DNA of 64,000 bases from assembly GCA_937929915.1 (NCBI GenBank), contig CALFUN010000008.1:124001-188000 (forward strand), in the 5' to 3' direction. The notes beneath the pieces were generated by a model. The model saw only the letters and a list, made by a program, of their open reading frames with translations, ran no database searches and had not been told where the DNA came from. The DNA is from an uncultured Caulobacterales bacterium (GTDB lineage Bacteria; Pseudomonadota; Alphaproteobacteria; Caulobacterales; Maricaulaceae). The position numbers and the translations under genes are program-made. Of the stretch, positions 15,388 through 30,504 are shown piece by piece. Position 1 is the stretch's first letter. Every line of letters starts with the position of its first letter.

Positions 15388-15738
15388 ATGCGGCAAAAAC
15401 AAACAACCCCAACAGACTATTCCCATGCGCAATTAACAGTTGCGGCTGTCGCTTTAGAATTTGGTGTACCAGAACTTGATCTGAATGCGCGTTTGAAAGG
15501 GTCTGCGGAGATTTGTTTTGCTCGGCAAGTTTCGATGTATCTGTTACATGTTATTTTCAATATAAACTTAACGCGTACGGCGCAGATGTTTTCTCGGGAT
15601 CGATCAACCGTCTCTCATGCGTGTAATGTTGTTGAAGATAGCCGAGATGACCCAATATTTAATACAAAGCTTGAACGGCTTGAAGCCTTTTTAGTGCAAG
15701 CCCCCCATGTACCAAATTATGTAAAACGAGCGGCATAA
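15388..15738 (+). CDS. DnaA-domain-IV-like helix-turn-helix protein, GafY-like GTA activator candidate
   Basis: The start at 15388 (MRQKQTTPTDYSHAQ, 116 residues) is set by GGAGGA 6 bases upstream. Residues about 30-95 match the DNA-binding domain IV of DnaA: an upstream helix with ARQVSMYLLHVIF, then TRTAQMFSRDRSTVSHACNV, which parallels the DnaA signature GGRDHTTVLHA. There is no AAA+ ATPase, so it is not DnaA. In Rhodobacter the GTA activator GafA contains a DnaA-like part and DUF6456; Caulobacter has them as separate proteins GafY and GafZ. Its TAATG overlap with a DUF6456 gene and position just before the GTA cluster make a GafY role likely. Known for the family: activation. Inferred: identity here. 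Confidence 0.75.
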   Translation: MRQKQTTPTDYSHAQLTVAAVALEFGVPELDLNARLKGSAEICFARQVSMYLLHVIFNINLTRTAQMFSRDRSTVSHACNVVEDSRDDPIFNTKLERLEAFLVQAPHVPNYVKRAA

Positions 15739-16490
15739 TGTTAGGTGAAATGGATATGCGGATTATTCGCCGTATCATGGAGTATAAAGGCCTTGTTGAT
15801 GCGGATACACGGTCCGATGCTTGTAAGGTTTTTCCAAATGGTGACCGCCGAAAACGGCCTGTATTTTGGCTTACAGATAAAGAAGTCAGGTGGCTTATAT
15901 CAGAAGATGCCCTTAAGCGTACGGCCAAAGGCTATATCGTTACGCCGAGCCTTGCACGCCGTATCCGCCTCGGTAAAGATGGGGCTTTAGGACAACACCA
16001 AAACTGCCAAGAGCAAGATATTTATATTCCTGAAGGTGTCATACGCAAAGCCAATGTTAATACACGCGCAAATGCGCTTGAACGTCTTGCCCGTAAAAAA
16101 GACCGTCAAGGACGGCTGGTCTTAAATGCAGCTGAAGTTGAGGCAGGGCGCCGGCTAGCCAAAGATTATGCACTTGCAGGTTTAAGGCATGTTTCCACGC
16201 AAAATTATATGAGTGCCGGCGCGGATGGCGGAGATCGCCACGGACAGCAAGAGGATAAAATTTTACGAAGCCTAACAGCGCGTACGCGCCTTAAAGCTGC
16301 CAATTCTGCCATGGGGGAGGGTTTAGATAAGGCTGTGATGGCGGTTTGTTGTCATGATGAAAGTTTAGAATCTATTGAGCGCAGTGAGCGTTGGGTGAAG
16401 TCTAGCGGGTTGACAATTTTGAAATTAGGTTTGTCGCGCCTTGTTAAACTCTATGGCACCGAAGCGGGTGTCAAACATGAACCAGTATAG
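15738..16490 (+). CDS. DUF6456 protein, GafZ-like GTA activator/antiterminator candidate
   Basis: A 250-residue protein. The N-terminal part (to about 80) is a small basic domain with RKRPVFWLTDKEVRWLISED. Residues about 105-235 are the DUF6456 core: NALERLARKKDRQGRLVLNA, EVEAGRRLAKDYALAGL, the VSTQNYMSAG segment, and AVMAVCCHDESLESIERSER followed by SSGLTILKLGLSRLVKLYG. Caulobacter GafZ, which corresponds to this half of GafA, is reported to act by transcription antitermination. The start overlaps the stop of the DnaA-like gene (TAATG), so the two are translated together. The first GTA structural gene starts 45 bases downstream. Confidence 0.8.
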   Translation: MLGEMDMRIIRRIMEYKGLVDADTRSDACKVFPNGDRRKRPVFWLTDKEVRWLISEDALKRTAKGYIVTPSLARRIRLGKDGALGQHQNCQEQDIYIPEGVIRKANVNTRANALERLARKKDRQGRLVLNAAEVEAGRRLAKDYALAGLRHVSTQNYMSAGADGGDRHGQQEDKILRSLTARTRLKAANSAMGEGLDKAVMAVCCHDESLESIERSERWVKSSGLTILKLGLSRLVKLYGTEAGVKHEPV

Positions 16491-16534
16491 ATGCGATTAA
16501 TCCACGTTCGTCAAAATGCGTCTAATCTTGTCTT

Positions 16535-16906
16535 ATGTCATCACAGGTTTCTGAACAGATATTACAGGCAGGTCTATCCGCGCTATTGGTTGAAATGGAG
16601 CGGCTCACTCAAGAGGTTGACGCGGGAGGCACGGTGAAAGCCATAGAGTTTGAACGCCTTGCAAAAGCGATCTCAACTTATGTGAAAACTGTGGATGATG
16701 TGAAGATACATCAAGATCGCATTTTGACACAAAAGAGGCTGCAAAACTACACCGCTTATGAAGATCTCCCGCCGCCAAGCCCTGAAGAACGGGCCCGCTT
16801 CATCAAAAGATTGCAAAAACTTTATGCCAGTATTGACCTCGGCGCAGCGATTGAGCGCGCTACTCTCCGCCATGGCGGGGAACGATCTGATCGGGATGAG
16901 CCATGA
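16535..16906 (+). CDS. GTA small terminase (g1-like)
   Basis: A 123-residue helical protein immediately before the large terminase and overlapping it. In Rhodobacter the gene in this place (g1) is the small terminase subunit that presents DNA to the packaging motor. The acidic and basic helices (about 10-75) and the LPPPSPEERARFIKRLQKLY segment near residues 77-96 fit the short GTA-type protein rather than a phage TerS with a clear helix-turn-helix. A degenerate DNA-binding end would suit the non-specific packaging of GTAs, but that is family knowledge, not seen here. Confidence 0.7.
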   Translation: MSSQVSEQILQAGLSALLVEMERLTQEVDAGGTVKAIEFERLAKAISTYVKTVDDVKIHQDRILTQKRLQNYTAYEDLPPPSPEERARFIKRLQKLYASIDLGAAIERATLRHGGERSDRDEP

Positions 16907-18119
16907 TTGGGAATTGCTTGCCAGAGACGATCAAATTGACTTTAATCTACCCGTACAGGATTGGCGCATATGGCTTTTAATGGGCGGGCGCGGGAGCGGT
17001 AAAACCAGAGCTGGAGCTGAATGGATTCGGGCGCAAGTTGCGGATAAATCTTGCCGTCACATTGCTTTGGTCGCGCCGAGCTTATCGGATGCGCGTGAAG
17101 TCATGCTGGAGGGCGAGAGCGGTTTGCTCAATATTGGCTTTCCTTCTGAGCGTCCCAAATTTATATCTTCGCGGCGACGCCTTGAATGGCCCAACGGGGC
17201 AATAGGACATATTTTCTCCGCCGAAGATCCAGATAGCTTGCGCGGCCCGCAATTTGATGCGGCTTGGGCCGATGAGTTTTGTGCCTGGAATTATCCAGAG
17301 GATACTTTATCAAATTTACGGTTTGGTTTACGCCTTGGCTGTGAAACGCGGCTTGTTGTGACCACAACGCCGCGGCCAATAGCGGCGCTTAAGTCTCTTA
17401 TGATACTGCCGAAAATAGTTATATCTCGCGCCAAGACATATGATAACGCCGCGCATCTTGCGCCCAGCTTTTTGGAAGCGATAGACGCCAGTTATGGCGG
17501 TACACAATTAGGCCGTCAAGAATTAGATGGCGATCTAATCACAGATCACGCTGGCGCTTTGTGGACACGGGCGCTGATTGAAACATGCCGCTGCAATGAG
17601 CTGCCAAACATAGACCGTGTGATTATTGCCGTTGACCCGCCCGCCAGTTCGGGGCCAAAGGCGGATCGGTGCGGTTTGGTTGTTGCAGGTCTTGCAGGAG
17701 ATGGAAAAAATAGCTGCGTTTATATTCTTCAAGATGCCTCTGTGCAGGGCTTAACACCAGAAGGCTGGGCGCGGCGCAGTGTGGCGCTTTACCATGAATG
17801 GAAGGCCGATTGCCTCTTAGCAGAAGTCAATCAAGGGGGCGAAATGGTCAAAACGATTTTGCATCAATGCGATCCAAATGTACCCGTCAGAACCGTGCAT
17901 GCTAGCCGTGGTAAAACAGCGCGCGCAGAACCGGTTGCGGCGCTCTATGAGCAAGGGCGCGTGTTTCATATGGGCCGATTTGATGCGCTCGAAGATGAAA
18001 TGGTGTTGATGGGGTCTGCTGCGATGAAACATAGTCCAGACCGCGTGGATGCCTTGGTTTGGGCCGTGCATGAGCTTATCTTGAAAAATAGACCTATCCC
18101 TCGTGTCAGGCAGGTTTAA
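16872..18119 (+). CDS. terL: GTA large terminase (g2-like)
   Basis: The ATPase/nuclease of the DNA-packaging motor. The frame is open further upstream, inside terS; starts at 16872 (MAGNDLIG, 415 residues) or 16896 (MSHDWELL) are both plausible and neither has a strong ribosome-binding site. Walker A is LLMGGRGSGKTRAGAEW (about residue 36-52), Walker B is FDAAWADEFCAWNY, and the RNase-H-like nuclease domain begins at VIIAVDPPASSGPKADRCGL (about 250). All catalytic elements look intact. The gene overlaps terS by 35 bases. Confidence 0.92.
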   Translation: MAGNDLIGMSHDWELLARDDQIDFNLPVQDWRIWLLMGGRGSGKTRAGAEWIRAQVADKSCRHIALVAPSLSDAREVMLEGESGLLNIGFPSERPKFISSRRRLEWPNGAIGHIFSAEDPDSLRGPQFDAAWADEFCAWNYPEDTLSNLRFGLRLGCETRLVVTTTPRPIAALKSLMILPKIVISRAKTYDNAAHLAPSFLEAIDASYGGTQLGRQELDGDLITDHAGALWTRALIETCRCNELPNIDRVIIAVDPPASSGPKADRCGLVVAGLAGDGKNSCVYILQDASVQGLTPEGWARRSVALYHEWKADCLLAEVNQGGEMVKTILHQCDPNVPVRTVHASRGKTARAEPVAALYEQGRVFHMGRFDALEDEMVLMGSAAMKHSPDRVDALVWAVHELILKNRPIPRVRQV

Positions 18120-18298
18120 GATAGGATTTCCTCGCTAACTTAAGCTGAAATAGCGCGCGGCGCAGCTGGCCATGATAACGGTCTGCTTTGCATATGTATA
18201 AGCGAATAGCCAAACTTACCATATAAGTATAAGTCTTTGTAACTTATAGTGGTTTAAGTAAAGTATTTGGACAAATTCCCGCCACAATTTGTTGGCAA

Positions 18299-18314
18299 TT
18301 AAGCTTCCATTAAC
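18299..18314 (+). promoter_or_regulatory. CtrA-like binding box inside the GTA cluster
   Basis: TTAA (18299-18302), seven bases, then TTAAC (18310-18314): an exact match to the CtrA consensus TTAA-N7-TTAAC. It lies 46 bases before the ATG of the 18361 gene, in the 241-base gap after terL. A TATATT at 18338-18343 could be a -10. CtrA is the cell-cycle master regulator of this bacterial group and is needed for GTA production in Rhodobacter; direct binding here is not shown. Confidence 0.6.
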
Positions 18315-18360
18315 GATAAGGCGTCATATTCCCACCTTATATTCTTTGTGGGAGAATTAA

Positions 18361-18798
18361 ATGGTTAAATCTGTGAAGTTTCGGAAAAAAGCAAAGCTCT
18401 CTGAAAAGCTAGAAACGACAGGGGCAGAAATCACGCAAGTCAAATTTGACCTCATACGCGAATTTATTTCATTGGCACGCCAAGAAAATGAAGCTGTTCA
18501 TTTGGATGATGCTTTGGCTGTATTATCTGCAATGACGCAATCTTTGTCTATGGAAAGCACTGTGCATGACCATGTCATATTACAAAGTGAGATTGCGGCG
18601 ACATTTTTGCGTATTGGCCGCAAAACTAATGACCAGAAAATATTGGTAAAAGCCAAACACGCGCATCGTTCTGCCATTACATTGGCGTCGATTTCAGGCA
18701 ATGATGCTTTGCGAGAAGAACTCCGAAAGAATTACCGTTTTACTTTAAGTTTGCTAGGTGACAAACCGAAAAACGTGTCCTTGTTTAAGGTCGCTTAA
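18361..18798 (+). CDS. Uncharacterised helical protein inserted in the GTA cluster
   Basis: 145 residues, not recognised. GGGAGAATTAA precedes the ATG. The N-terminus is very basic (VKFRKKAKLSEK); the rest is predicted all-helical. Residues about 80-130, with ILQSEIAATFLRIGRKTN and AKHAHRSAITLASISGND, resemble a degenerate TPR helix pair. No signal peptide, membrane helix or catalytic motif. It lies between terL and portal, where RcGTA has no gene, and has its own leader with a CtrA-like box. Gaps of 241 and 141 bases set it apart from the otherwise overlapping cluster, so it may be a separately regulated insertion. Confidence 0.75.
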   Translation: MVKSVKFRKKAKLSEKLETTGAEITQVKFDLIREFISLARQENEAVHLDDALAVLSAMTQSLSMESTVHDHVILQSEIAATFLRIGRKTNDQKILVKAKHAHRSAITLASISGNDALREELRKNYRFTLSLLGDKPKNVSLFKVA

Positions 18799-18887
18799 AA
18801 GCTTTAAAAAACAATATCTTTATAGATAATCCTACGGATTAATCCGCACCATGCTGGTTTGACCCTATAAACAGCTTATCGACATAA

Positions 18888-18907
18888 TTGAGACATAAAA
18901 TTCTCAA
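18888..18907 (+). repeat. Inverted repeat before the portal gene
   Basis: TTGAGA (18888-18893) and TCTCAA (18902-18907) with an 8-base centre, 32 bases before the portal ATG. It could be an operator or a weak hairpin; no T run follows. Confidence 0.35.
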
Positions 18908-18939
18908 CTGTCTACACGCTTTTATCAGGACAGCCTTTC

Positions 18940-20136
18940 ATGAAAAATCCATTTCGCAGTCATAAGACTGCCGCTTCGAGCGTGTCTGAATTTGCACCCG
19001 AGACAAAAATGGCCGCGCAGCCATTAATCGCCTTGCAGCTTGGCGGCAATGGTGCGCATTGGACACCACGTGAGTTTTCAGCGCTTTGCCGAGAGGGCTA
19101 TGCGCGTAACCCTGTGGCGTATCGATGTGTTAGGATGATTTCAGAAGCGGCGGCTTCTGTTCCGTTTCAAACGCGGCGTGCGGGGCAATCTTTAGCTGAT
19201 GATCCTGCCGCGCGGTTTTTAACCCGTAGTCATCCGCAGCAATCCGCAACGGAAATGATGGAAGCCTTTTACGGCTATCTACAAGTGGGCGGCAATGCTT
19301 ATCTTGAGGCTGTCCTGAGCAGCGGCGTCCCGATTTCCATGCAATCGCTTCGGCCTAATCAAATGAAAATCGCTCTAGACAAATCAGGGCGGGTTCTTGG
19401 TTGGGACTTTGAAAATGGCCGTCAGAAGCGACGCTATAATCGTGAGATTGCTACGGGGCGATGTGCGGTGCATCATATGCGTTTGTTTAATCCATCGGAT
19501 GATTGTTATGGCTTATCCCCGCTTGAAGCGGCGGCGCAGGCGGTGGATTTACATAATCAAGGCGGACAATGGGCGAAGGCTTTATTAGATAATTCAGCCC
19601 GCCCGAGCGGTGCGTTAATATATTCAGGCGGGCAGGGTGAGCGCTTAACGGATGAGCAATTTGACCGACTGAAATCTGAACTGGAAGGGGATTTTTCAGG
19701 CCCGCGCCATGCTGGACGACCTATGGTACTGGAGGGCGGTTTAGATTGGAAATCTATGAGTATGTCGCCATCTGATATGGATTTCACACAAACTCGCCGC
19801 GAAGCTGCGCGAGATATTGCCCTGGCTTTTGGTGTCCCGCCAATGCTCTTGGGTATTCCTGGTGATAATAGCTACGCCAATTATAAAGAGGCAAATCAAG
19901 CCTTTTGGCGGCAGACAATTATTCCGCTTGTGCGCAAAACAGCGCGCGGTCTTGAAGGGTGGTTACAGCCTTTCTTCGGGGATGATTTGCAAATTCATGC
20001 AAACCTAGATGATGTTCCTGCGATGGCCGAAGAACGCGCAACGCTCTGGCGTAGATTGTCAGAGGCTCGCTTTATCTCGGATGATGAGCGTCGCCATATG
20101 GCAGGATTAAGCCTCGGCGCTCAAGAGGCGAGATAA
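18940..20136 (+). CDS. GTA portal protein (g3-like, HK97 family)
   Basis: A 398-residue HK97-type portal. Typical elements are YARNPVAYRCVRMISEAAAS near residue 55, the YGYLQVGGNAYLE stretch near 110, the YGLSPLEAAAQAVDLHNQG helix near 190, and DFTQTRREAARDIALAFGVP with PPMLLGIPGDNSYANYKEAN near 290-325. It forms the dodecameric ring through which DNA enters the head. The start is supported by AGGACAG about 12 bases upstream. It overlaps the next gene by one base. Confidence 0.94.
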   Translation: MKNPFRSHKTAASSVSEFAPETKMAAQPLIALQLGGNGAHWTPREFSALCREGYARNPVAYRCVRMISEAAASVPFQTRRAGQSLADDPAARFLTRSHPQQSATEMMEAFYGYLQVGGNAYLEAVLSSGVPISMQSLRPNQMKIALDKSGRVLGWDFENGRQKRRYNREIATGRCAVHHMRLFNPSDDCYGLSPLEAAAQAVDLHNQGGQWAKALLDNSARPSGALIYSGGQGERLTDEQFDRLKSELEGDFSGPRHAGRPMVLEGGLDWKSMSMSPSDMDFTQTRREAARDIALAFGVPPMLLGIPGDNSYANYKEANQAFWRQTIIPLVRKTARGLEGWLQPFFGDDLQIHANLDDVPAMAEERATLWRRLSEARFISDDERRHMAGLSLGAQEAR

Positions 20137-20381
20137 TGGCAGAGCGTAATACATCATTTGACCGAACAATAACATTAGGCCTTGTGGTTACAGTCATGCT
20201 GCAAACGGCGGGTGCGTTAGTCTGGGTTGGGGCGACCGAGGCACGGCTGAATACGCTTGAAACGCAAATGGCCTTGACCCCAGCTGTGGCTGAACGTCTG
20301 GCACGTTTGGAAGGACAATCCATTGTCATGGCTCAAAGCCTGTCGCGCATTGAGCGCCGCTTAATGCAGCCCGAGAAATAA
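20136..20381 (+). CDS. Small GTA membrane protein (g3.5-like)
   Basis: 81 residues with one N-terminal helix (about 12-31, GLVVTVMLQTAGALVWVGAT) and a C-terminal coiled-coil segment (TEARLNTLETQ, AERLARLEGQ). A small membrane ORF at this place is known in RcGTA (g3.5), function unclear. TAATG overlap with the portal gene supports it as real. Confidence 0.75.
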   Translation: MAERNTSFDRTITLGLVVTVMLQTAGALVWVGATEARLNTLETQMALTPAVAERLARLEGQSIVMAQSLSRIERRLMQPEK

Positions 20382-20416
20382 ACCTTACAGCGGGCCGCTT
20401 AAACTAGGATTTAATT

Positions 20417-20896
20417 ATGACAACTTTTAATGACGCTGATCTACGGATTAGCGGTTATGCGAGCCTGTTTGGTCAAACCGATCTTGGCGGAGATAGTATC
20501 AAAGCTGGCGCTTTTGCAGCCAGTATTTTACAGCTCGAAAATGGCCGACTGCCAATGTTGTTTGGACATAAAATAGCCAATCCGATTGGTGTGTGGGACC
20601 GCATCATTGAAGACCGTACAGGCTTGTTTGTTTCGGGCCGAGTTATTGCAGGGACTATACAGGCAGATCGCACAATTCGCCTCATTCGGGAAGGCGCGGT
20701 TGACGGCTTATCCATTGGGTATCGTGTCCGCCGTAAAGCCTCCCATCCGCAAGGCCGTATATTAACAGAACTCGATCTTTGGGAGGTCTCTGTCGTTGCC
20801 TTCCCGATGCAGCGCACAGCGCGGATCACTCAAATAGACGACACCCCAAATCAAATATCGACATCACACCCGCAATTACAAAGGAGTATAGCGTGA
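20417..20896 (+). CDS. GTA prohead protease (g4-like, HK97 family U35)
   Basis: A 159-residue serine protease that removes the scaffold-like N-terminal part of the capsid protein during head maturation. It begins with the typical DLRISGYASLFGQTDLGGD. The catalytic His is in MLFGHKIANPIGVWDRI (about residue 51) and the Ser in GAVDGLSIGYRVR (about 100), matching the HK97 His/Ser arrangement. The stop overlaps the GTG start of the capsid gene (GTGA). Confidence 0.92.
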   Translation: MTTFNDADLRISGYASLFGQTDLGGDSIKAGAFAASILQLENGRLPMLFGHKIANPIGVWDRIIEDRTGLFVSGRVIAGTIQADRTIRLIREGAVDGLSIGYRVRRKASHPQGRILTELDLWEVSVVAFPMQRTARITQIDDTPNQISTSHPQLQRSIA

Positions 20897-22116
20897 GTCA
20901 CATCCCAAAAATTGAAACCAAAATGGGGCCAAGCGACCTAAAAACCGCTCAGGCTGATTTTGCCTCTACATTCGCCGCGTTTAAGGACGCTAATGATCAA
21001 CGCCTTGCTGAAATTGAAAAAAAAGCATCTAGCGACACCTTGCTAGATGATAAAGTTTCGCGATTAAATGCTGCCTTGGATAGCCAATCTAAACAGATTG
21101 AAAATCTGTCTGTATCCCTATCAGCGCCGAGCTACAGCCCAACTGTAAATCATGAGGCTAAATCGGCTTGGTCATCTTTTATCCGAACGGGTGATGCCTC
21201 TGCTTTAGTTTCTATTGAAGGCAAGGCCTTAAGCACATCCGATGCGGATGGCGGCTATATTGCCCCTATTGAAACAGAGAGCCGTATTGATGGTGTGTTG
21301 CGTGAGGCGTCTCCGATGCGCTGTATTGCGGCGGTTCGGTCTATTGGCACGTCAAGCTTTAAAAAACCTGTGAGCGCAACAGGCGCAGCCTCTGGCTGGG
21401 CAGGTGAGGTTGATACGCGTATTGAAACAGATGCCCCTCAGCTTGAGCTGCTCGATTTTCCGACAGGCGAGCTTTATGCAATGCCAGCAGCCACTCAGGC
21501 TTTGTTAGATGATGGCGTTGCCGATGTGGATCAATGGCTGGCAGAAGAAGTTCGCGATGTATTTGCAGCGCAAGAAACGGCGGCCTTTGTCAATGGCGAT
21601 GGTCTTAATAAACCACGCGGCTTCCTCTCTTATGTACAGGCTGCCAATGGCTCTCAAGCTTGGGGCGAAATTGGTACTGTGTCTACAGGTGTGGCGGGCG
21701 GCTTCGATATAGATGCGCCTGTTGATGCCATTTTAGATCTTATCTACGCACCTAAGTCACGCTACCGCGCAGGCGGCAGCTTTGTCATGAACCGGCGCAC
21801 CGTTAATGATGTGCGTAAGTTTAAAGATACGGACGGTAATTATATTTGGCAACCTTCAAGCAAAGCTGGTCAGCCGAGCACATTACTGGGCTATCCATTG
21901 GTTGAGATGGAAGACATGCCAGATGTAAGCGCTGGCGGGGCGGCAATCGCTTTTGGTGATTTTCGTCGCGGCTATCTCATTGTTGACCGCCAAGGTATTC
22001 GCGTTCTGCGCGATCCATATTCTGCCAAGCCATACGTGTTGTTCTACACAACAAAACGTGTTGGCGGGGGCGTGCAAGATTTTGACGCGATTAAAGTCTT
22101 GAAAACATCAGCATAA
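20893..22116 (+). CDS. GTA major capsid protein (g5-like, HK97 fold)
   Basis: The GTG at 20893 is chosen because AAGGAG lies 6 bases upstream and it overlaps the protease stop; a longer in-frame ORF starts inside the protease gene. It gives 407 residues. Residues about 15-95 form a coiled-coil delta domain that the protease should remove. The mature part starts near GKALSTSDADGGYIAP and shows the HK97 features GASGWAGEV-like and LLDFPTGELYAMPAATQALL, ending FYTTKRVGGGVQDFDAIKVL. It forms the head shell. Confidence 0.95.
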   Translation: MSHIPKIETKMGPSDLKTAQADFASTFAAFKDANDQRLAEIEKKASSDTLLDDKVSRLNAALDSQSKQIENLSVSLSAPSYSPTVNHEAKSAWSSFIRTGDASALVSIEGKALSTSDADGGYIAPIETESRIDGVLREASPMRCIAAVRSIGTSSFKKPVSATGAASGWAGEVDTRIETDAPQLELLDFPTGELYAMPAATQALLDDGVADVDQWLAEEVRDVFAAQETAAFVNGDGLNKPRGFLSYVQAANGSQAWGEIGTVSTGVAGGFDIDAPVDAILDLIYAPKSRYRAGGSFVMNRRTVNDVRKFKDTDGNYIWQPSSKAGQPSTLLGYPLVEMEDMPDVSAGGAAIAFGDFRRGYLIVDRQGIRVLRDPYSAKPYVLFYTTKRVGGGVQDFDAIKVLKTSA

Positions 22117-22203: not shown

Positions 22204-22746
22204 ATGATTAAAGATATAGACCCGCCCAATATAGAGCCTGTAAGCTTACAAAGTGCGAAAGCCTTTTTACGTGTGGATCATGACGGCGAAGATGAATTAA
22301 TTACGGATTTGATTAAAGCCGCTCGCATGCGAATTGAAAGCCATTTATCAATTAGCCTTATTACGCGTCGTCAATATTATGAAAAATCCGTGTCTGAGAC
22401 TGCGGGCTTATATATAAATCATTACCCAATAAAGCGCGTTATTGCCGTTGAGTCTATTTTCGCAGATGAAACACAACGCCTTCACCCGTCTGATTACTTG
22501 GTTAATCTTCATGCGCGTCCAGCAACATTACGATTATTATCAAGATCCAGCCAACAGGCTCAGGCTTTACGTGTTGAACTGGAAGCTGGGTTTGGAGCAA
22601 CCGTTGAGGATGTGCCTATGCCTATACGCCAGGCAATTATGCTACTGATTGCGCAAAGCTTTGAGCATCGCGGGGATGATGGTCCGCATGCAATGCCGAT
22701 GATGGTGGATGCATTGCTTATGCCTTATCGGGGCTTAAGATTATGA
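22204..22746 (+). CDS. GTA head-tail connector (g6-like, gp6 family)
   Basis: 180 residues. The first part matches the phage gp6-like head-tail connector family: IEPVSLQSAKAFLRVDHDGE, then DLIKAARMRIESHLSISLIT near residue 40. The later AIMLLIAQSFEHRGDDG helix is also typical. It forms the adaptor ring below the portal. AGAGAGG lies just upstream of the ATG. It overlaps the next gene by 4 bases. Confidence 0.88.
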   Translation: MIKDIDPPNIEPVSLQSAKAFLRVDHDGEDELITDLIKAARMRIESHLSISLITRRQYYEKSVSETAGLYINHYPIKRVIAVESIFADETQRLHPSDYLVNLHARPATLRLLSRSSQQAQALRVELEAGFGATVEDVPMPIRQAIMLLIAQSFEHRGDDGPHAMPMMVDALLMPYRGLRL

Positions 22747-23060
22747 TTGGCGATCTGCGCGTTCGCCTCGGGCTTTATGTCCCTTCCAAAGCTCCAGATG
22801 AATTGGGTGGTAACGCAACAAGCTGGGTGTTTTCCCGCTCGCTTTGGGCTGCGATAGAGCCGCGATCTTTAACGGAAAGGCAAGAAAATGGGCGGCTTGC
22901 TGTGACTCAGACTTACCGTGTTATTATTCGTTTCCAAAAGAGTTTCCCACAGCGCGCGAGGTTTATGTGGGGAGACCGCATCTTGCGGGTCATCGCCGCA
23001 TCAGACCCAGATACACGGCGTGAGCGGCTACATTTGATCTGCGAGGAGGAAAAACAATGA
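22743..23060 (+). CDS. GTA head-closure/stopper protein (g7-like)
   Basis: 105 residues of the SPP1 gp16-like head-tail adaptor family: GDLRVRLGLYVPSKAPDELG at the N-terminus, SLWAAIEPRSLTERQENGRL in the middle, TYRVIIRF and MWGDRILRVIAASDPD at the end. It closes the head after packaging. Overlaps both neighbours by 4 bases. Confidence 0.88.
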   Translation: MIGDLRVRLGLYVPSKAPDELGGNATSWVFSRSLWAAIEPRSLTERQENGRLAVTQTYRVIIRFQKSFPQRARFMWGDRILRVIAASDPDTRRERLHLICEEEKQ

Positions 23061-23497
23061 GCTTATCTTTAACGCGTAATGCAGAGGACCTAGCCAAAGC
23101 TGTCCATGCGGCTCTGTCTGCCAATGCGCATATGCAATTAATTCTAGGGGATCCGCCGAGGCTTTATGATAGCGCGCCCGAAGACCCTGTTTTTCCGTAT
23201 TTGACATATGGCCCGATGCGCTCTGTTGATATTGGCGCAGATGAAACGGAGCTTATTTCGCATCAAATGACGCTGCATATCTGGTCACGTTATGAAGGTC
23301 GTGCAGAAGTTTTTGCTAGCTTAAATTATATAGCAGATGCGCTGAATGTAACAGCCCTAAACCAAAATGATGCTGTGTCGATTATCAATGTGAATCCAAT
23401 TTATGTGGATGTCTTGCGGGCCGCTGATGGGCGCACAATGCACGGACTTTTGCGTATGTCTTTTTCCACTCAAACGACTTTAAGGGAGGCTGTATGA
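23057..23497 (+). CDS. GTA tail terminator, DUF3168 (g8-like)
   Basis: 146 residues with the DUF3168 pattern: AVHAALSANAHMQLILGDPP, then the PVFPYLTYGPM and HQMTLHIWSRYEG segments, and HGLLRMSFSTQT at the end. The DUF3168 protein sits at the head-tail junction and ends the tail tube. ATGA overlaps on both sides. Confidence 0.9.
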   Translation: MSLSLTRNAEDLAKAVHAALSANAHMQLILGDPPRLYDSAPEDPVFPYLTYGPMRSVDIGADETELISHQMTLHIWSRYEGRAEVFASLNYIADALNVTALNQNDAVSIINVNPIYVDVLRAADGRTMHGLLRMSFSTQTTLREAV

Positions 23498-23904
23498 CGG
23501 CCCAACGCGGCAGCGATATGTTGCTTAAAATAAAAAATGATACAGGAGACTATGTCACAATAGCAGGGCTGCGGACGAAGTCCTTACGTTTGAATGCGCG
23601 TCCTGTAGATGTAACGGATACGGCGTCAGTTGGCGGCTGGAAAGAGCTGCTGCCTGGCGCGGGTATTCGCTCTGCTGAAATTAGCGGTAGCGGTGTGTTT
23701 CGGGATGCAAGTTCTGATGCGATTGCGCGGCAAAGTTTTTTTGAGCAAAGCGCGCAGGATTATCAATTTATCATTCCTGACTTCGGGCAAATCACAGGCC
23801 CGTTTCTGTTAAGTAATCTAACATATGGCGGAACATATCAGGGCGAAGCGACATTTGAATTAACCCTTGTTAGTGCTGGCGCGCCAGATTTTACGGCGCT
23901 TTAA
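23494..23904 (+). CDS. GTA major tail tube protein (g9-like, TP901-1 family)
   Basis: 136 residues. It begins QRGSDMLLKIKNDTGDYVTI and contains RTKSLRLNARPVDVTDTASV, GIRSAEISGSGVFRD and YGGTYQGEATFELTLVSAGA, the standard pattern of GTA/TP901-1 major tail proteins. It polymerises into the tail tube. Overlaps the previous gene by 4 bases and the next by one. Confidence 0.93.
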   Translation: MTAQRGSDMLLKIKNDTGDYVTIAGLRTKSLRLNARPVDVTDTASVGGWKELLPGAGIRSAEISGSGVFRDASSDAIARQSFFEQSAQDYQFIIPDFGQITGPFLLSNLTYGGTYQGEATFELTLVSAGAPDFTAL

Positions 23905-24221
23905 TGTCTTACCAGATTGGTACGGAATCCATTACAATCGTAAACCAAAATTATAATTTGCAATTAACGATGGGGGCATTAGCTGAAATCTCCGTCCGAT
24001 TTAGAGCTTCGGGGCCGATAGAGCTCGCGGCGCGATTACGCCGCATGACTATATCGGATGCCCGAGAGCTGCTAGCCTGCCTTTTGCGTCCCTCTCTCCC
24101 CCGATATGCCCCTCGGTTGGATGCAGGCAGGTTAGCCGCTCAAATTTCTAATGATGATGTGCAAAAGGCTTTACCAAAAATGTGCCGTATCATTGAACAA
24201 GCCTTTGAGGGGCAATCATGA
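23904..24221 (+). CDS. GTA tail protein g10-like (tail chaperone-type)
   Basis: 105 residues of the GTA-specific g10 family: a short beta part, then LQLTMGALAEISVRFRASGP with IELAARLRRMTISDARELLA helices. Position between tail tube and tape measure suggests a tail-assembly chaperone. ATGA overlap with the next gene. Confidence 0.85.
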   Translation: MSYQIGTESITIVNQNYNLQLTMGALAEISVRFRASGPIELAARLRRMTISDARELLACLLRPSLPRYAPRLDAGRLAAQISNDDVQKALPKMCRIIEQAFEGQS

Positions 24222-24481
24222 GCGATGCAGGGACAGGGCCAAGGCCAGGGCCAGGGTCAGAGCCAGTTTCCAAGCCAGAGAGCAATCAAGATTGGCCTTT
24301 TGATACATGGCTGCGATTGGCTGTTTTACATATGCATATGTCGCCGCAGGATTTTTGGAATATCAGCGTTCGAGATTGGTTTGCGTTGTGTCATCGACAA
24401 GAGGCAAAGCAATTCTCGCAAATAAATCTTGCCAAGCTCATGCAAGATTTTCCTGATTCAAGTGCTGAAAATATCAGCTGA
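24218..24481 (+). CDS. GTA tail assembly chaperone-like protein with repeat linker (g10.1-like)
   Basis: 87 residues. The C-terminal part WPFDTWLRLAVLHMHMSPQD followed by FWNISVRDWFAL is the short phage tail assembly chaperone motif found after g10 in GTAs. The N-terminal 25 residues are unusual: a GPRPGPGSEP linker encoded by a hexanucleotide repeat (24228-24266). Overlaps g10 by 4 bases. Confidence 0.78.
   Translation: MSDAGTGPRPGPGSEPVSKPESNQDWPFDTWLRLAVLHMHMSPQDFWNISVRDWFALCHRQEAKQFSQINLAKLMQDFPDSSAENIS
24228..24266 (+). repeat. Imperfect CAGGGC hexanucleotide repeat in the g10.1-like gene
   Basis: Six in-frame hexamers (CAGGGA, CAGGGC, CAAGGC, CAGGGC, CAGGGT, CAGAGC) plus CAG, starting 10 bases after the ATG. 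Each unit adds two residues, so gain or loss keeps the frame and only changes linker length. Confidence 0.8.
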
Positions 24482-24497
24482 ATAGAAAGATATAAAA

Positions 24498-24920
24498 ATG
24501 GATGATCTGAATAATTCCGCAAGTGCTTTAGAAAATTTCGCTAATAATGGCGGCGTTCAAGGGGCTGAAAATGTTGCAAGAGCTTTTGAACTTGCGGGTG
24601 ATAGAATCTCTAATGCGTTAACGCGGGCTGCGAAAACAGGTGAGTTTTCATTTAACTCACTTGCAGAAAGTGTGGCCCGTGATTTAGCGAAACTCGCTGT
24701 TGATCAATTTATTACAGGACCGCTTGAGCAGCTTGTTGGAGGTATAGGCGGGGCATTATCTGGCGCGCTTGGCGGTGCGATTACGGGCGGCGGTAATAAA
24801 TCATCTGTGACTGTGAACATGAATGTATCTGGAAATGCAGCTTCAGGATTTAAAAACTCGCAAGGGCAAGTGGCGTCTAAATTGGCGCAAGCCGTGCAGC
24901 GTGGCCAATCACGTATTTAA
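24498..24920 (+). CDS. GTA tape measure protein, very short (g11-like)
   Basis: 140 residues. The pattern fits the GTA/lambda-type tape-measure end: helices with RISNALTRAAKTGEFSFNSL and AESVARDLAKLAVDQFI, then a Gly/Ala-rich hydrophobic stretch GGIGGALSGALGGAITGGG, and a C-terminal VTVNMNVSGNAASGF segment with LAQAVQRGQSRI. Tape measures set tail length; that of RcGTA is about 219 residues, so this one is short even for a GTA. No frameshift or upstream extension is evident: the previous gene stops 16 bases before the ATG. Confidence 0.82.
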   Translation: MDDLNNSASALENFANNGGVQGAENVARAFELAGDRISNALTRAAKTGEFSFNSLAESVARDLAKLAVDQFITGPLEQLVGGIGGALSGALGGAITGGGNKSSVTVNMNVSGNAASGFKNSQGQVASKLAQAVQRGQSRI

Positions 24921-24976
24921 TTCAAATAATTAAATTATTTTATTTCACTATTCGTCTCTTATTTAGGTAAAATTCT

Positions 24977-25621
24977 ATGACAGGTTTCCATGATGTTCGC
25001 TTTCCTGCGAACCTTGCTTTTGGGGCGAGCGGCGGCCCGCAACGCCGCACAGAGATAGTGCAGCTTGCCAATGGGTGTGAGGTTAGAAATACAAGACAAT
25101 ATCATTCTCGGCGTCAATATAACGCCAGCACATCTATTAAAAATCTTCAGGATGCTATTGAAATAAATAAATTTTTTGAACTTCGCTGCGGTCAATTATA
25201 TGCATTTAGATTTCGGGATTTACTCGACCATTCTTCGTCAGATGGTGATGAAGCGATTCAAGAAAATGATCAGATATTAGGACAGGGAGACGGCCAGACA
25301 ACAACCTTTCAATTAATTAAATCATATAGTGATGACGTGCAAAACTACATACGGCCAATTACAAAACCTATCATTGAAACAGTTATGATCGCTGTGAATG
25401 GGCAAGCATTAAACAGATCAGATTTTACTGTAAATGGGTTAACGGGCCTCGTTGAACTTGCATCACCGCCGGCGCTTAAAGCTATTATTACGGCAGGGTT
25501 TGAATTTGATGTCGCTGTTCGGTTTGATACAGATAGGCTTGATATTGCCTATGAAGATTTTGATGGTTTGCAAGTCTCAGATATTCCATTGATAGAGGTG
25601 TTTGATTATGAAAATAATTAA
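24977..25621 (+). CDS. GTA distal tail protein, DUF2460 (g12-like)
   Basis: 214 residues with DUF2460 hallmarks: FHDVRFPANLAFGASGGPQR at the N-terminus, the HSRRQYNAS segment, FFELRCGQLYAFRFRDLLDH near residue 75, and FDVAVRFDTDRLDIAYEDFD near the end. It forms the ring between tail tube and baseplate. It overlaps the hub gene by 14 bases. Confidence 0.94.
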   Translation: MTGFHDVRFPANLAFGASGGPQRRTEIVQLANGCEVRNTRQYHSRRQYNASTSIKNLQDAIEINKFFELRCGQLYAFRFRDLLDHSSSDGDEAIQENDQILGQGDGQTTTFQLIKSYSDDVQNYIRPITKPIIETVMIAVNGQALNRSDFTVNGLTGLVELASPPALKAIITAGFEFDVAVRFDTDRLDIAYEDFDGLQVSDIPLIEVFDYENN

Positions 25622-26267
25622 TTCAGCTTTGCAGGAACATGTCAATGAAGGTGTGACGACCTTATGCTCATTATGGCGATTGCAGCTCAAAGATGATACG
25701 CAGATTGGTCTAACAGATCATGATAGAGTTTTGGATTTTCAAGATCTGTCATATGAACCACAAAATAGTTTTGAAGCTAGTGATACGGAAAACCGTCTGG
25801 GGTTTGCCGCAGATAGCGGCGCGCTACGTTTGGTATTTAACCTGCCGCAACTGACTCAAGAGAGTTTACAAAACGGTATTTTAGATGAGGCGCGCTTATT
25901 CCATTACCGTGTGAACTGGCAAGATGTCTCGCAATATGTTCTCATATCTGTTGGGCGCGTTGGGCAAATCCAGGCGAGCGCAGATGGGTTTGAGGCTGAT
26001 TGGGTTGGACTGGCAACGCAGCTTGAGCGCAATACGGGGCGTATATTTTCAAAGCAATGCGATGCTGAATTTGCCGATAAGCGCTGTCGTTTAAACCGAG
26101 AAGATTTCCCAGACGGCACAGTTTGTCCGCGTACATATGAAGCCTGTCAGATGCAGTTTTCAAATGCTCAAAATTTTCGTGGATTTCCTTATTTGCTGGG
26201 AGATGATGCTTTGCAAGCGTCACCGCAAATCGGAGAGCGCCGTGACGGAAGCTCGCGTTACAAATAA
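25608..26267 (+). CDS. GTA baseplate hub protein, DUF2163 (g13-like)
   Basis: 219 residues from the ATG at 25608; a TTG two codons earlier is less likely. DUF2163 features: LCSLWRLQLKDDTQIGLTDH and DRVLDFQDLSYEP at the N-terminus, then the phage_BR0599-type end with FSKQCDAEFADKRCRLN, TVCPRTYEACQMQF and NFRGFPYLLGDD. The four Cys in this end match the iron-sulfur site reported for the RcGTA hub. It links tube and fibre. The stop overlaps the next ATG by one base. Confidence 0.92.
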   Translation: MKIINSALQEHVNEGVTTLCSLWRLQLKDDTQIGLTDHDRVLDFQDLSYEPQNSFEASDTENRLGFAADSGALRLVFNLPQLTQESLQNGILDEARLFHYRVNWQDVSQYVLISVGRVGQIQASADGFEADWVGLATQLERNTGRIFSKQCDAEFADKRCRLNREDFPDGTVCPRTYEACQMQFSNAQNFRGFPYLLGDDALQASPQIGERRDGSSRYK

Positions 26268-26749
26268 TGTCTAATCCCTTTATTGGAGATAATATCACGC
26301 GCATGCTTGTTTTGCGGGCAGCTTATCTTTGGCTTAATACGCCTTATCAACATCAAGCCAGTTCGCGCGGGGCAGGGACAGATTGCCTTGGGTTTATCCG
26401 TGGAGTTTGGCGCGAAATTTACGGGTTTGAGCCAGAAACACCGCCTGCATATACGCCCGATTGGGCTGAACAAAACGGTCAAGAAACATTATATGATGCT
26501 GCCAAGCGCTGTCTCGTGCCTATTCCAAAGTCTCAAACACAGGCCGGCGATGTGTTGTTGTTTCGGATGCATAGTGAGGCGCCCTGTAAACATATTGGGA
26601 TTTTATCTGCGCCTGATAAATTGCTCCATGCCTATTGGGGCAAAGCTGTCGTTGAAAGCCATCTTGTGCCGTATTGGCGCAAACGGTGGGTCTATAGTTT
26701 TGCTTTTCCGCCGCTTACAAATTTGTCTGATTTGAAAGATACATTATGA
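26267..26749 (+). CDS. GTA NlpC/P60 peptidase (g14-like)
   Basis: 160 residues. Cell-wall peptidase of the NlpC/P60 family: catalytic Cys in GAGTDCLGFIRGVWREIYG (about residue 44) and His in CKHIGIL (about 108), then LLHAYWGKAVVES. In GTAs this protein sits in the baseplate and is thought to open the peptidoglycan of the recipient. One-base overlap upstream and ATGA overlap downstream. Confidence 0.93.
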   Translation: MSNPFIGDNITRMLVLRAAYLWLNTPYQHQASSRGAGTDCLGFIRGVWREIYGFEPETPPAYTPDWAEQNGQETLYDAAKRCLVPIPKSQTQAGDVLLFRMHSEAPCKHIGILSAPDKLLHAYWGKAVVESHLVPYWRKRWVYSFAFPPLTNLSDLKDTL

Positions 26750-29700
26750 CCACGCTTGCCATTTCTGCTGCCCAAGCGGCAGGTAGTACATTAGCCTCAA
26801 CGGCTGTATCGACAGCCACGAGCCTTGCGCTGTCTACGGCGACAAACGCAATTTCAAGGGTGTTTGATAATCGGGTTTTTGAAGGCCCGCGTCTTGATAG
26901 TTTTCACTTGCAAACCTCACGTGATGGTGCGCCCATGGCGCGCGTTTATGGGCGCGTAAGGCTCGCAGGGCAGGTGATTTGGGCCTCTCAGATTCGCGAA
27001 ACATCGACAGAAGAGCGCGTGTCTAGCGGGAAAGGCGGCGGGCCGCGGCAACGTAACTTTAGTTACTCGATTAGCTTTGCGATTGGACTTTGCGAAGGGG
27101 AAATCCTTGGGGTTGACCGTATTTGGGCCAATGGTAATGTTTTACAAATGGCGGGCCTGACAATGCGTGTTTATACGGGCAATGAGAGGCAAAACCCTGA
27201 CCCTATTATTGCTGCCACGGAAGGCGGGGATGTAACGGCGTTTCGCGGTACGGCTTATATTGTTTTTGAAGATTTCCCGCTTGATGATTACGGCGCACGA
27301 TTGCCGCAGATAAATGTTGAGGTTATTCGTGTGCCGCGCAATGAAACAGGGAAGCCGCGTCTGGAGCATTTGATAAAGAGTGTCTGTCTTTTGCCGGGGT
27401 CTGGAGAATTTGCTTATAGCCCGCAAATTATCGAAGAAAATCCGCGTCCAGGGGTAACGCGCCCAGTGAATATGAATAATCTTTCGGGCGTAGCAGATAT
27501 AGAACAAGCCCTTGACCAACTTGAAGCCCAGCTTCCAAATTGCCGAAATGTATCTGTCGTATCGTCATGGTTTGGTACAGATTTACGCTGCAGAGACTGC
27601 GAGATTAAACCAGGTATAGAGCGTCGTGAACGTGTTATTCGTAATCTGAAATGGCAGGTTGGGCGTGATGATCGCGGCAATGCTTATCTTGTGAGCAGCG
27701 ATAAAGATGGGCGCCCAAATTTTGGTGGATCACCATCGGATGAGAGCTTAATCGGCGCGATACGTGATCTTAAATCACGCGGGTTCTCCGTCACATTATA
27801 CCCTTTTATTTTAATGGATATACCGCCTGATAACCAACTGCCTAATGTTGATGGTATTGGGTTTCAGCCTGCTTTTCCGTGGCGCGGCCGAATTACAGCA
27901 AACCGAGATAAAAGCGTGCAAACGCGCAGTGAAGTTGATCAGTTTTTTGGCAATGCTGTACCTGCGGATTTCTCGGTTGGTGCAGGAGATCAGCATCACC
28001 GCTCATCAGATTATAAGTATCATAACTTTATTTTGCATCACGCAAATATAGCGCGCCGTGCAGGCGGGGTAGACCGGTTTATAATTGGGTCAGAAATGCG
28101 GTCTTTGACGACATTGCGCGATCAAAATGACGCCTTCCCTGCCGTTGAAAAAATGATAGAATTAGCCCGTTATGTTAGAGCCATGTTAGGGCCGAAGACA
28201 GGCATAACTTATGCTGCAGATTGGACGGAATATTTCGGGTATCAACCGCCTGATGGTAGCGGTGATGTCTTTTATCATTTAGATAATTTATGGGCAGATA
28301 ATGCGATTTCATCCATTGGAATTGACGCCTATTTCCCGCTGTCAGATTGGCGTGATACTGCGATAAATAAGGATGTAGACGCCGCGGATAATATCTATGA
28401 TTTATCTTATCTATCCTCACAGATAGAAGGCGGGGAAGGCTATGATTATTTCTATGCGAGCGCTGCAGATAGACAGACGCAAATTCGCTCTGATATTACC
28501 GATGGCGCCGCGCAGAAGCCTTGGGTTTTTCGGTATAAAGATGTGCGCAACTGGTGGCTAAATTCACATTATGAACGCCGCAAAGGTGTTGAATTCAATA
28601 CCCCGACAAAATGGCAAGCGCAAAGTAAACCAATCTGGTTTACTGAAATTGGGTGTCCCGCTATTCACAACGGAGCCAATCAACCTAATGTGTTCTCTGA
28701 CCCAAAGAGTATTGAAAGTAATATTCCATATTTTTCAAATGGTTCACGTGATGACCTCATGCAAAGACATTATCTTGAGGCTTTGATTAATTACTGGGAC
28801 AACCCGCAAATCAATCCGATCTCAGAGAGCTATAAAGCGGAAATGATAGACACAGATATGATCTGTGTTTGGGCTTGGGATGCGCGGCCTTTTCCAGATT
28901 TTCCAGCGCGCAACTCTGTGTGGTCTGATGGAGAAAATTGGCAGGTTGGACATTGGCTTACGGGGCGCATGGGCCTTATGCCGATAAGCTATGTGATTGA
29001 AGATTTATCGCAGCAAACAGACCTTAGTAATTTAGATGTAACGGGGGTTAATGGTGTCTTACAAGGCTATCTTATTGATCGTCCGATGAGCGCGCGTTCA
29101 GCCCTAACGCCTTTGATGGATATTCTTAATTTAGAGCTAAGTGAACGAGACGGAAAACTGGTGTTTCAGTCGCCTGATAATGCGCCCGTCATTTCGCTTG
29201 ATGCTGCCTATTTACGTCAAAATTCCATCTCGCCTATAAGCTTTAGTAAGAGTGATCCAGATCAAGCTTTGCGGGATGTGCGTGTGCATTTTATCGACAT
29301 CACAAATGACTATCAACTAGGGTCAATTTCAGCCCGTGACCGCGCTGCAGAAACTGTTCGAATTTCCGATGTTAGATTACCGCTTGTTATGGATCAAAAC
29401 TATGCGAGTTTTTTGGCCGAGCAACAACTCGAAACACATCATTTATCAATGCAAAGCCTATCTTTAAACCTGCCGCCTTTAGCCGCGCTATCATTACATG
29501 TCGGAGATAAATTTACATTTGAAGAGTATAACGGCTTGTGGCGTTTAGATAATTTAGAAACGGGCGAAATCGCGAGCTTGTCACTGACGCGCGTGCCAGA
29601 AAATGCAAATGTTCGAACAGCAGGAAGTGTGCCCGCAATATCTGCTGATCCTATATTCCAAGGGCGCCCAGCCTGTTTTGCGTTCGATATATCAGGCGTA

Positions 29701-30504
29701 TATAATGGGCCAGTATTAGGCGCAGTTATGACACCGTATGAAACGGTGCAAATTAACGGGCCATCCGACACTTTATCGGCAAATACCGAATTACGCATTG
29801 GTGCATTGCTGACAGATTTAGATGCGGGGCCCGTTGCAAGATGGGATCATGCTAATCAATTTGAGTTTTACATGCCAAATGCGCGCTTTGCTGCGCTCGA
29901 AGATGAGGCGTTACTTGGCGGAGGCAATAAATTCGCGATTGAAACACAGGCAGGATGGGAGATTATTCAAATCCGCGATATTACATTGATTGGGCCTGAT
30001 CGATATATCTGCCAAACTTTGCTGCGCGGCCTTGATGGAAGCGAAGCGGATATGACGGCGCGTATTCATGCAGGCGCGCGGGTTATATGGCTTAATCAAG
30101 GTGTGTTTGACATGGATTTAAGCTCTGAATTTCTACGCGAGACGGTTACATTTAAATGCGATGTCAATGGCCGTGAGGGCGATGCAGCAAAGCTAATTTA
30201 TACAGGGCGGCATTTACGTCCGCTTGCGCCTGTGCATGTCAAAGCTACAAAAGAGGGTGCGATACTGCATCTAAGCTGGATTCGCCAAACGCGCATTAAT
30301 GGCGATATGTGGACTGGTGAGGTGCCGCTTGGCGAAGCTGAGGAGCGCTATCGTGTGCAATGTTTTGATAATCAAACGTTAATATCTGATAGACAGGTCA
30401 CGCAGCCACATTATTCAGGTGATATGGGCATAGCCACCCGCGCACAAATTTCACAATTTTCCAATATTTATGGATGGGGCGCGACGGCGAGTATTGCGTT
30501 TTAA
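26746..30504 (+). CDS. GTA large baseplate/fibre protein with TIM-barrel-like domain (g15-like)
   Basis: 1252 residues, the last gene of the cluster and the size of RcGTA g15. The N-terminus (about 1-230) is the baseplate-hub part with APMARVYGRVRLAGQVIWAS and a SFAIGLCEGEILGVDRIWAN segment. Residues about 380-720 form the GTA TIM-barrel-like domain (FIIGSEMRSLTTLRD, GITYAADWTEYFGY, IGIDAYFPLSDW and IWFTEIGCPAIHNGANQPN). Beta-rich domains follow to the end. It probably contacts the recipient surface; a glycoside-hydrolase activity is possible, since Asp and Glu residues remain in the barrel, but is unproven. Confidence 0.93.
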   Translation: MTTLAISAAQAAGSTLASTAVSTATSLALSTATNAISRVFDNRVFEGPRLDSFHLQTSRDGAPMARVYGRVRLAGQVIWASQIRETSTEERVSSGKGGGPRQRNFSYSISFAIGLCEGEILGVDRIWANGNVLQMAGLTMRVYTGNERQNPDPIIAATEGGDVTAFRGTAYIVFEDFPLDDYGARLPQINVEVIRVPRNETGKPRLEHLIKSVCLLPGSGEFAYSPQIIEENPRPGVTRPVNMNNLSGVADIEQALDQLEAQLPNCRNVSVVSSWFGTDLRCRDCEIKPGIERRERVIRNLKWQVGRDDRGNAYLVSSDKDGRPNFGGSPSDESLIGAIRDLKSRGFSVTLYPFILMDIPPDNQLPNVDGIGFQPAFPWRGRITANRDKSVQTRSEVDQFFGNAVPADFSVGAGDQHHRSSDYKYHNFILHHANIARRAGGVDRFIIGSEMRSLTTLRDQNDAFPAVEKMIELARYVRAMLGPKTGITYAADWTEYFGYQPPDGSGDVFYHLDNLWADNAISSIGIDAYFPLSDWRDTAINKDVDAADNIYDLSYLSSQIEGGEGYDYFYASAADRQTQIRSDITDGAAQKPWVFRYKDVRNWWLNSHYERRKGVEFNTPTKWQAQSKPIWFTEIGCPAIHNGANQPNVFSDPKSIESNIPYFSNGSRDDLMQRHYLEALINYWDNPQINPISESYKAEMIDTDMICVWAWDARPFPDFPARNSVWSDGENWQVGHWLTGRMGLMPISYVIEDLSQQTDLSNLDVTGVNGVLQGYLIDRPMSARSALTPLMDILNLELSERDGKLVFQSPDNAPVISLDAAYLRQNSISPISFSKSDPDQALRDVRVHFIDITNDYQLGSISARDRAAETVRISDVRLPLVMDQNYASFLAEQQLETHHLSMQSLSLNLPPLAALSLHVGDKFTFEEYNGLWRLDNLETGEIASLSLTRVPENANVRTAGSVPAISADPIFQGRPACFAFDISGVYNGPVLGAVMTPYETVQINGPSDTLSANTELRIGALLTDLDAGPVARWDHANQFEFYMPNARFAALEDEALLGGGNKFAIETQAGWEIIQIRDITLIGPDRYICQTLLRGLDGSEADMTARIHAGARVIWLNQGVFDMDLSSEFLRETVTFKCDVNGREGDAAKLIYTGRHLRPLAPVHVKATKEGAILHLSWIRQTRINGDMWTGEVPLGEAEERYRVQCFDNQTLISDRQVTQPHYSGDMGIATRAQISQFSNIYGWGATASIAF

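What the first reader, a model, noticed from the sequence alone, without database searches (positions are those of the whole stretch)
15388..30504. Complete gene transfer agent cluster with its putative activators attached
All RcGTA-type structural genes g1-g15, in the same order, follow directly after a DnaA-domain-IV-like gene and a DUF6456 gene. In Rhodobacter the equivalent activator GafA is encoded apart from the structural cluster. Here regulators and structure form one colinear block, which would allow co-inheritance as a unit. Motifs, overlaps and order are seen; identity with GafY/GafZ is inferred from domain types.
Basis: partly seen in the sequence, partly recalled or inferred. Interest (0 to 1): 0.8.

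Follow-up and report, generated by a model that had tools for sequence, protein, structure and literature searches.

The report
Gene transfer agent joined to activators
This bacterium carries a domesticated virus-like DNA-shuttling gene cluster whose two likely on-switch genes sit directly in front of its structural genes, an arrangement that seems to have arisen when a block of ordinary genes moved away from between them.

Summary
Window 15388-30504 encodes a stand-alone DnaA-domain-IV protein (GafY type), a DUF6456 protein (GafZ type), then an RcGTA-type head-tail cluster g1-g15 in order, plus one extra gene between g2 and g3. No second copy of either regulator was found in the 91.7%-complete assembly. 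The linkage is local: among 137 family genomes it occurs in the window's genus (15 of 15 with gafZ) and genus g7, Hellea (4 of 7). Elsewhere gafZ is mostly followed by sufE, often with the co-oriented GTA further downstream. A GTA-gene tree nests the linked clade, support 100, among genera with the gapped order, so relocation of the intervening block is the best reading. One other family also shows direct linkage. A palindrome resembling the published RogA repeat precedes gafY in 55 of 62 genomes; its strict form occurs once in this assembly. A GTA-promoter-like element fills the 44-bp gafZ-g1 gap; some linked relatives lack it. Function is inferred.

The parts
14141..14572 (+). MucR/Ros-type regulator, left neighbour of gafYZ
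   Evidence: Pfam ROS_MUCR E 3.1e-44; same neighbour in many family loci
14753..15256 (+). PAS_5 protein, left neighbour of gafY
   Evidence: Pfam PAS_5 E 2.8e-14
15323..15337 (.). palindrome TAGGAATATAATCCT, proposed RogA-type operator over the gafYZ promoter
   Evidence: only strict match in the 2.49-Mb assembly; AGGA-N6-TCCT near gafY in 55 of 62 genomes; resembles GGAA-N4-TTCC reported for Caulobacter PgafYZ, one base off that consensus; also contains TATAAT
15388..15738 (+). gafY-type gene, stand-alone DnaA domain IV protein, 116 aa
   Evidence: Bac_DnaA_C; start chosen from GGAGG and ATG
15738..16490 (+). gafZ-type gene, DUF6456 protein, 250 aa
   Evidence: DUF6456
16499..16534 (+). GTA-promoter-like element (AATCC, spacer, TAATCTT) ending at the g1 start codon
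   Evidence: similar element in 10 of 19 linked junctions; element defined by eye from these sequences; two other matches in the window
16535..16906 (+). g1, small terminase by position and size, 123 aa
   Evidence: tblastn relatives in several linked genomes; no family hit
16872..18119 (+). g2, large terminase (start inferred; open frame begins 16758)
   Evidence: Terminase_6N and 6C; ATG at 16872
18361..18798 (+). extra in-cluster gene, 145 aa, all-helical model
   Evidence: no Pfam or NCBIfam hit; relatives at the same place; model mean pLDDT 86.9
18940..20136 (+). g3 portal
   Evidence: Phage_portal E 1.6e-80
20136..20381 (+). g3.5
   Evidence: position; relatives at same place
20417..20896 (+). 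g4 prohead protease
   Evidence: Peptidase_S78 E 1.6e-26
20779..22116 (+). g5 major capsid (start uncertain, open frame overlaps g4)
   Evidence: Phage_capsid E 1.7e-85
22204..24481 (+). g6 to g10.1: connector, head and tail completion, tail tube, chaperones
24498..24920 (+). g11 short tape measure, 140 aa
   Evidence: Tape_meas_lam_C E 5.3e-12
24977..26749 (+). g12, g13, g14: DUF2460, hub, NlpC/P60
26746..30504 (+). g15, GTA_TIM megatron, 1252 aa
   Evidence: GTA_TIM E 7.6e-136; GTA_megatron 1394.7 bits
30589..34003 (+). right flank: DnaJ-type, PepSY, response regulator, histidine kinase
   Evidence: same genes after g15 in many relatives

Best explanation
This is a chromosomal RcGTA/CcGTA-type gene transfer agent. 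In the common ancestor of this genus and Hellea, a block of ordinary genes beginning with sufE moved away from between gafYZ and the GTA cluster, leaving the split activator directly upstream of g1. Proposed working, inferred from Caulobacter: a RogA-type repressor holds the palindrome over the gafYZ promoter; when it lets go, GafY (with IHF) amplifies gafYZ, and GafZ acts on RNA polymerase at the promoter kept in the gafZ-g1 gap so that it reads through the cluster. Read-through from gafYZ can add to this. Shown by sequence: gene content, copy number in the assembly, synteny, GTA-gene tree, palindrome, gap element. Inferred: the relocation event, repression, activation, anti-termination, co-transcription, particle production.
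For: Domains and order. One DUF6456 and one DnaA_C besides DnaA in the assembly. Flanks shared with relatives on both sides. sufE within 3 kb of gafZ in 67 of 88 genomes of other genera with both, but 0 of 15 in this genus and 0 of 6 in g7. sufE, a histidine kinase and two neighbours stay together elsewhere in this assembly and in G046, G059 and G060. Hellea-genus genome G019 plus 13 genomes of this genus form a clade with ultrafast bootstrap 100, nested among genera with the gapped order. Palindrome before gafY in 55 of 62 genomes, strict form once in this assembly, resembling the published RogA repeat. Gap element in 10 of 19 linked junctions, against 27 matches in 2.86 million strand-bases (1.43 Mb read on both strands) of other loci.
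Against: No expression, binding or particle data. The palindrome here departs by one base from GGAA-N4-TTCC and contains TATAAT, so part of its conservation may be a -10 box; strict matches also occur away from gafY in 8 of 13 genomes searched. The only HTH-S24 candidate for RogA seems by eye to keep Ser and Lys, whereas the Caulobacter paper says RogA lacks key catalytic residues (passage). The gap element was defined by eye from these sequences, matches only 4 of 17 unlinked upstream regions and has two other matches in the window. G022 and G023 in g7 have gafZ near neither sufE nor the GTA, so the history has more than one step. In other genera 21 of 88 genomes also lack sufE next to gafZ. 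Assembly 91.7% complete.
Confidence: 0.8

Rival explanations
1. Direct activator-structure linkage is the ancestral, phage-like state, and other lineages had a housekeeping block inserted between gafZ and g1.
For: A second family (f128) also shows gafZ just before the terminase genes; a phage with GafA and GTA-like genes is mentioned in print (passage).
Against: The order gafZ-sufE is found in 67 of 88 other family genomes and in the outgroup loci G145 and G447, and is printed for Hyphomicrobiales; the linked clade is nested. In f128 genomes G262 and G521 MucR is inverted relative to gafZ. 0 of 80 viral loci with a related TerL showed gafZ or gafY in the DNA held.
Confidence: 0.1
2. The region is an ordinary or recently acquired prophage rather than a GTA.
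For: Head-tail genes are phage-like throughout; contigs with related TerL sit in a viral collection.
Against: No integrase or phage replication family in the 20 ORFs scanned; flanking chromosomal genes are shared with relatives; GTA-gp10 and GTA_TIM families; GTA_TIM in 110 of 137 family genomes, with one match in all but three of these.
Confidence: 0.04
3. The linkage changes nothing: gafYZ and the GTA are transcribed separately as in Caulobacter, and adjacency is incidental.
For: A GTA-promoter-like element is present in the gap in this window and in 9 other linked junctions.
Against: Six of 19 linked junctions show no recognisable element; in G049 the gafZ stop and g1 start overlap and in G050 gafZ runs past candidate g1 starts, leaving no intergenic DNA.
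Confidence: 0.35

Closest known systems
Caulobacter crescentus CcGTA with GafY, GafZ and RogA
   Same: Split gafY-gafZ pair, RcGTA-type cluster, inverted repeat like the reported RogA repeat before gafYZ, GTA promoter with AATC-type -35 and TA-rich -10 (passages and section)
   Different: In Caulobacter gafYZ (CCNA_01111-01112) and the cluster (CCNA_02880-02861) are separate loci (passages); here they are 44 bp apart. Proteins not compared directly
Rhodobacter capsulatus RcGTA with GafA
   Same: g1-g15 gene order (order recalled; domains)
   Different: GafA is one fused protein encoded elsewhere, usually between lipoyl synthase and GMP synthase genes (passage); here split and linked; extra gene between g2 and g3; short g11
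Hyphomicrobiales split gafA genes
   Same: mucR or HTH gene upstream, small DnaA-like gene, then DUF6456-type gene (passage)
   Different: sufE is downstream there; here sufE is on another contig and the GTA follows
Roseophage RDJL phi 1
   Same: GafA and GTA-like structural genes in one genome (passage)
   Different: A phage, with a CtrA-like gene between gafA and its neighbour; not compared by sequence here

Membership tests
RcGTA-type gene transfer agent | head-tail cluster g1-g15 in conserved order | tested here: met
   g1 and g3.5 by position only
RcGTA-type gene transfer agent | no integration or phage replication genes, chromosomal flanks shared with relatives | tested here: met
   20 ORFs scanned; flanks
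RcGTA-type gene transfer agent | vertical inheritance | tested here: inconclusive
   GTA-gene tree groups by genus; no separate species tree was built
RcGTA-type gene transfer agent | packages and transfers random host DNA | not testable with these tools
   needs particles
GafY | stand-alone DnaA domain IV protein encoded next to GafZ | tested here: met
   PRK06030 small-protein models match below their cut-offs
GafZ | DUF6456 domain | tested here: met
   103.7 bits, cut-off 26.3
GafY/GafZ | direct sequence comparison with the Caulobacter proteins | not tested
   their sequences were not fetched; the control genome Caulobacter vibrioides rings for DUF6456
GafY/GafZ | activation and anti-termination of the GTA cluster | not testable with these tools
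   needs experiment
RogA-controlled promoter | GGAA-N4-TTCC inverted repeat in the gafYZ core promoter | tested here: inconclusive
   GGAA-N4-ATCC in the window; exact form in G005 (L094)
RogA-controlled promoter | a RogA orthologue in the genome | tested here: inconclusive
   three S24 matches: a LexA-like protein, a 210-aa HTH-S24-like protein, a 93-aa protein; RogA itself was not fetched

The most novel reading that the evidence does not exclude
After the activators landed beside the cluster, several lineages lost the separate GTA promoter, so that one repressor site and one self-amplifying promoter drive activators and all structural genes as a single operon: a domesticated prophage regaining a phage-like one-switch layout. 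A second family reached linkage on its own, and two of its six genomes put a RogA-like palindrome between gafZ and g1 instead, in one of them with a sigma-70-like promoter.
Probability: 0.35. Interest if true: 0.65.

Novelty: new variant of a known kind. Interest (0 to 1): 0.45.

Why it matters
GTA activators are described as separate from the structural cluster in Rhodobacter and Caulobacter (passages). A clade with direct linkage, related genera with the gapped order, and junctions that do or do not keep a GTA-type promoter make the question of how a host-controlled GTA switch is rewired directly testable. The conserved palindrome before gafY gives a concrete operator to test. Listings for GTA with Hyphomonadaceae, Maricaulaceae, Hyphomonas, Maricaulis, or Robiginitomaculum/Hellea show no paper whose title or abstract start is about GTA regulation in this group; the papers of those five listings were not opened.

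Tried and rejected
GafZ of the window in viral contigs: three pattern matches, none a relative. Rfam: 0 gathering matches in the window. Fold search of the 145-aa gene: 0 PDB matches at E 0.001 or better. A search for a GafY-binding element was not pursued: one site is mapped in Caulobacter but no general motif is given. Alignment A1 held one wrong row (a gafZ) and was replaced by A2. The regex for the GTA promoter misses G059, G051 and G044, near matches by eye. Labels prfC, PBP, aquaporin, YcgN-like and patatin for intervening genes are my reading of the proteins printed; a Pfam check of some failed on coordinates and was not repeated; SufE is from Pfam.
Full report
What is there. The ORF list and Pfam scans confirm a co-oriented block on the + strand: a DnaA domain IV protein, a DUF6456 protein, then terminase, portal, protease, capsid, connector and tail genes up to a 1252-aa GTA_TIM protein, which also matches NCBIfam GTA_megatron at 1394.7 bits against a cut-off of 800. 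g1 has no family hit and is named by position and size. A 145-aa gene at 18361-18798 without Pfam hit is extra relative to the RcGTA order as I recall it; relatives sit at the same place in this genus, g7, G002 and G098. Its model is all-helical, mean pLDDT 86.9, with no PDB match at E 0.001 or better.

Are the regulators GafY and GafZ? The assembly has one DUF6456 match and two DnaA_C matches, one in a 527-aa frame as expected of DnaA itself. The left neighbours are a PAS_5 and a MucR-type gene; a mucR or HTH gene beside a small DnaA-like gene and the DUF6456-type gene, with sufE downstream, is reported for Hyphomicrobiales (PMC9638019, passages). Caulobacter GafY and GafZ match the N- and C-terminal parts of GafA and are unlinked to the GTA (PMC9632790 and PMC11150451, passages). 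I did not fetch those proteins, so orthology rests on domains, copy number and synteny.

How far does the linkage extend? Of 137 genomes of the family, 111 have a DUF6456 match and 110 a GTA_TIM match. Of 46 genomes with both on one contig, 11 have them 6-16 kb apart on the same strand, all in this genus (9) or genus g7 (2); 24 have the GTA 16-60 kb downstream on the same strand; 11 have other arrangements. Reading the loci, TerL follows gafZ in 15 of 15 genomes of this genus with gafZ, with 2.0 and 3.4 kb between in G053 and G052; in G052 gafZ itself is split by a contig end. In g7 it follows in 4 of 7; G022 and G023 show no GTA gene in the 5.7 and 10.7 kb after gafZ, and G018 is cut at a contig end. 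No call named the window's own genus.

What lay between? In gapped genera gafZ is followed by a convergent sufE, a histidine kinase and further genes, then g1. Outside the two genera, sufE lies within 3 kb of gafZ in 67 of 88 genomes that have both; in 13 it is further off on the same contig and in 8 on another contig. Inside them it is 0 of 15 and 0 of 6. In this assembly and in G046, G059 and G060 sufE, the kinase and two neighbours remain together elsewhere; in the two g7 sufE loci read only sufE was recognised. A tree of seven GTA proteins over 36 taxa (2735 columns, LG+F+G4, rooted on L146 and L152) places g7 genome G019 plus 13 genomes of this genus in one clade with ultrafast bootstrap 100; its relatives are G002 (99 for the joint clade), then G107 and G098 (100), then Maricaulis and Oceanicaulis types. 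G014, G016 and G017 had too few genes and dropped out. Relocation of a roughly 13-kb block in one ancestor is the simplest reading. In 385 genomes drawn from the class, 28 have both families, 18 on one contig; 2 of these 18 (this genome and G262) are within 16 kb on the same strand, 7 have the GTA 16-60 kb downstream on the same strand, 9 are otherwise placed. In G262's family, f128, a TerL match lies just after gafZ in 5 of 6 genomes; the sixth locus has 1.1 kb after gafZ and gave none.

Control elements. AGGA-N6-TCCT occurs 54-101 bp before the gafY start in 55 of 62 genomes read, 55 of 59 in the family; misses are G042, G044, G136, G080 and, outside, G325, G145, G447. The strict form TAGGAA-N3-WW-TCCT occurs once in this 2.49-Mb assembly, before gafY, and 1-7 times in the 12 other genomes searched, where a palindrome can count on both strands; the reversed control gave 0-2 per genome. 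The Caulobacter paper reports GGAA-N4-TTCC repeats in the RogA-bound gafYZ promoter (PMC9632790, passage). Other XRE proteins also repress gafYZ there (PMC10688885, passages), so the bound protein could be another repressor, and the element here contains TATAAT. At g1, AATCC or GATCC, a spacer that is often palindromic by eye, and TAnnnT shortly before ATG recur; in Caulobacter the -35 is AATCAT, the -10 TATCTTT and a palindrome needed for GafZ binding lies between them (PMC11150451, section and passages). A regex made by eye hits 10 of 19 linked junctions and 4 of 17 unlinked upstream regions, and 27 times in 2.86 million strand-bases of the loci, possibly including true g1 sites. The window has it at 16499, ending at the g1 ATG, and at two other places, 23926 (+) and 56095 (-); g1 lacks a visible Shine-Dalgarno. 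G050, G060, G049, G058, G014 and G016 show no element by eye; in G049 the gafZ stop overlaps the g1 start and in G050 gafZ runs past candidate starts. In f128, G262 and G521 have the palindrome after gafZ, the other four do not; in G262 a TTGACT/TATAAG promoter by eye follows it.

Mechanism and limits. The proposed working follows Caulobacter and is inferred. Particle production, activation and anti-termination are untested. Clusters with missing parts but gafYZ present (G046, G058, G014, G080) caution that linkage does not guarantee function. Kogay et al. report gafA homologues in 196 of 208 genomes and suggest co-evolution with the head-tail cluster (PMC9765227, passages). I found no paper describing direct linkage in searches, which cover open-licence papers only; of those listed I looked into passages of eight (one section).

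Noticed in passing
18361-18798: A conserved 145-aa gene with an all-helical model and unknown role lies between TerL and portal in this genus, g7, G002 and G098.
   Followed up: partly
L047 (G046), L048 (G058), L049 (G014), L067-L068 (G080): GTA clusters with parts missing by tblastn (late tail genes, portal to g14, or g1-g14) while gafYZ, and in three of the four TerL, remain.
   Followed up: partly
L050:13167, L084:14567, L048:11727: A second palindrome of the same type lies just before the portal gene in G019, G017 and G058; in the first two 1.9 and 3.4 kb separate the 145-aa gene from portal.
   Followed up: no
L111, L117, L121 (G050); L096, L108, L116, L120 (G019): Further strict palindrome matches elsewhere in G050 and G019; their neighbouring genes were not read.
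   Followed up: no
L051:3833 and L128:1424: In two of six f128 genomes a RogA-like palindrome lies between gafZ and the terminase genes.
   Followed up: partly
L134, L135 (G366): Two extra weak DUF6456 matches on other contigs of one f128 genome.
   Followed up: no
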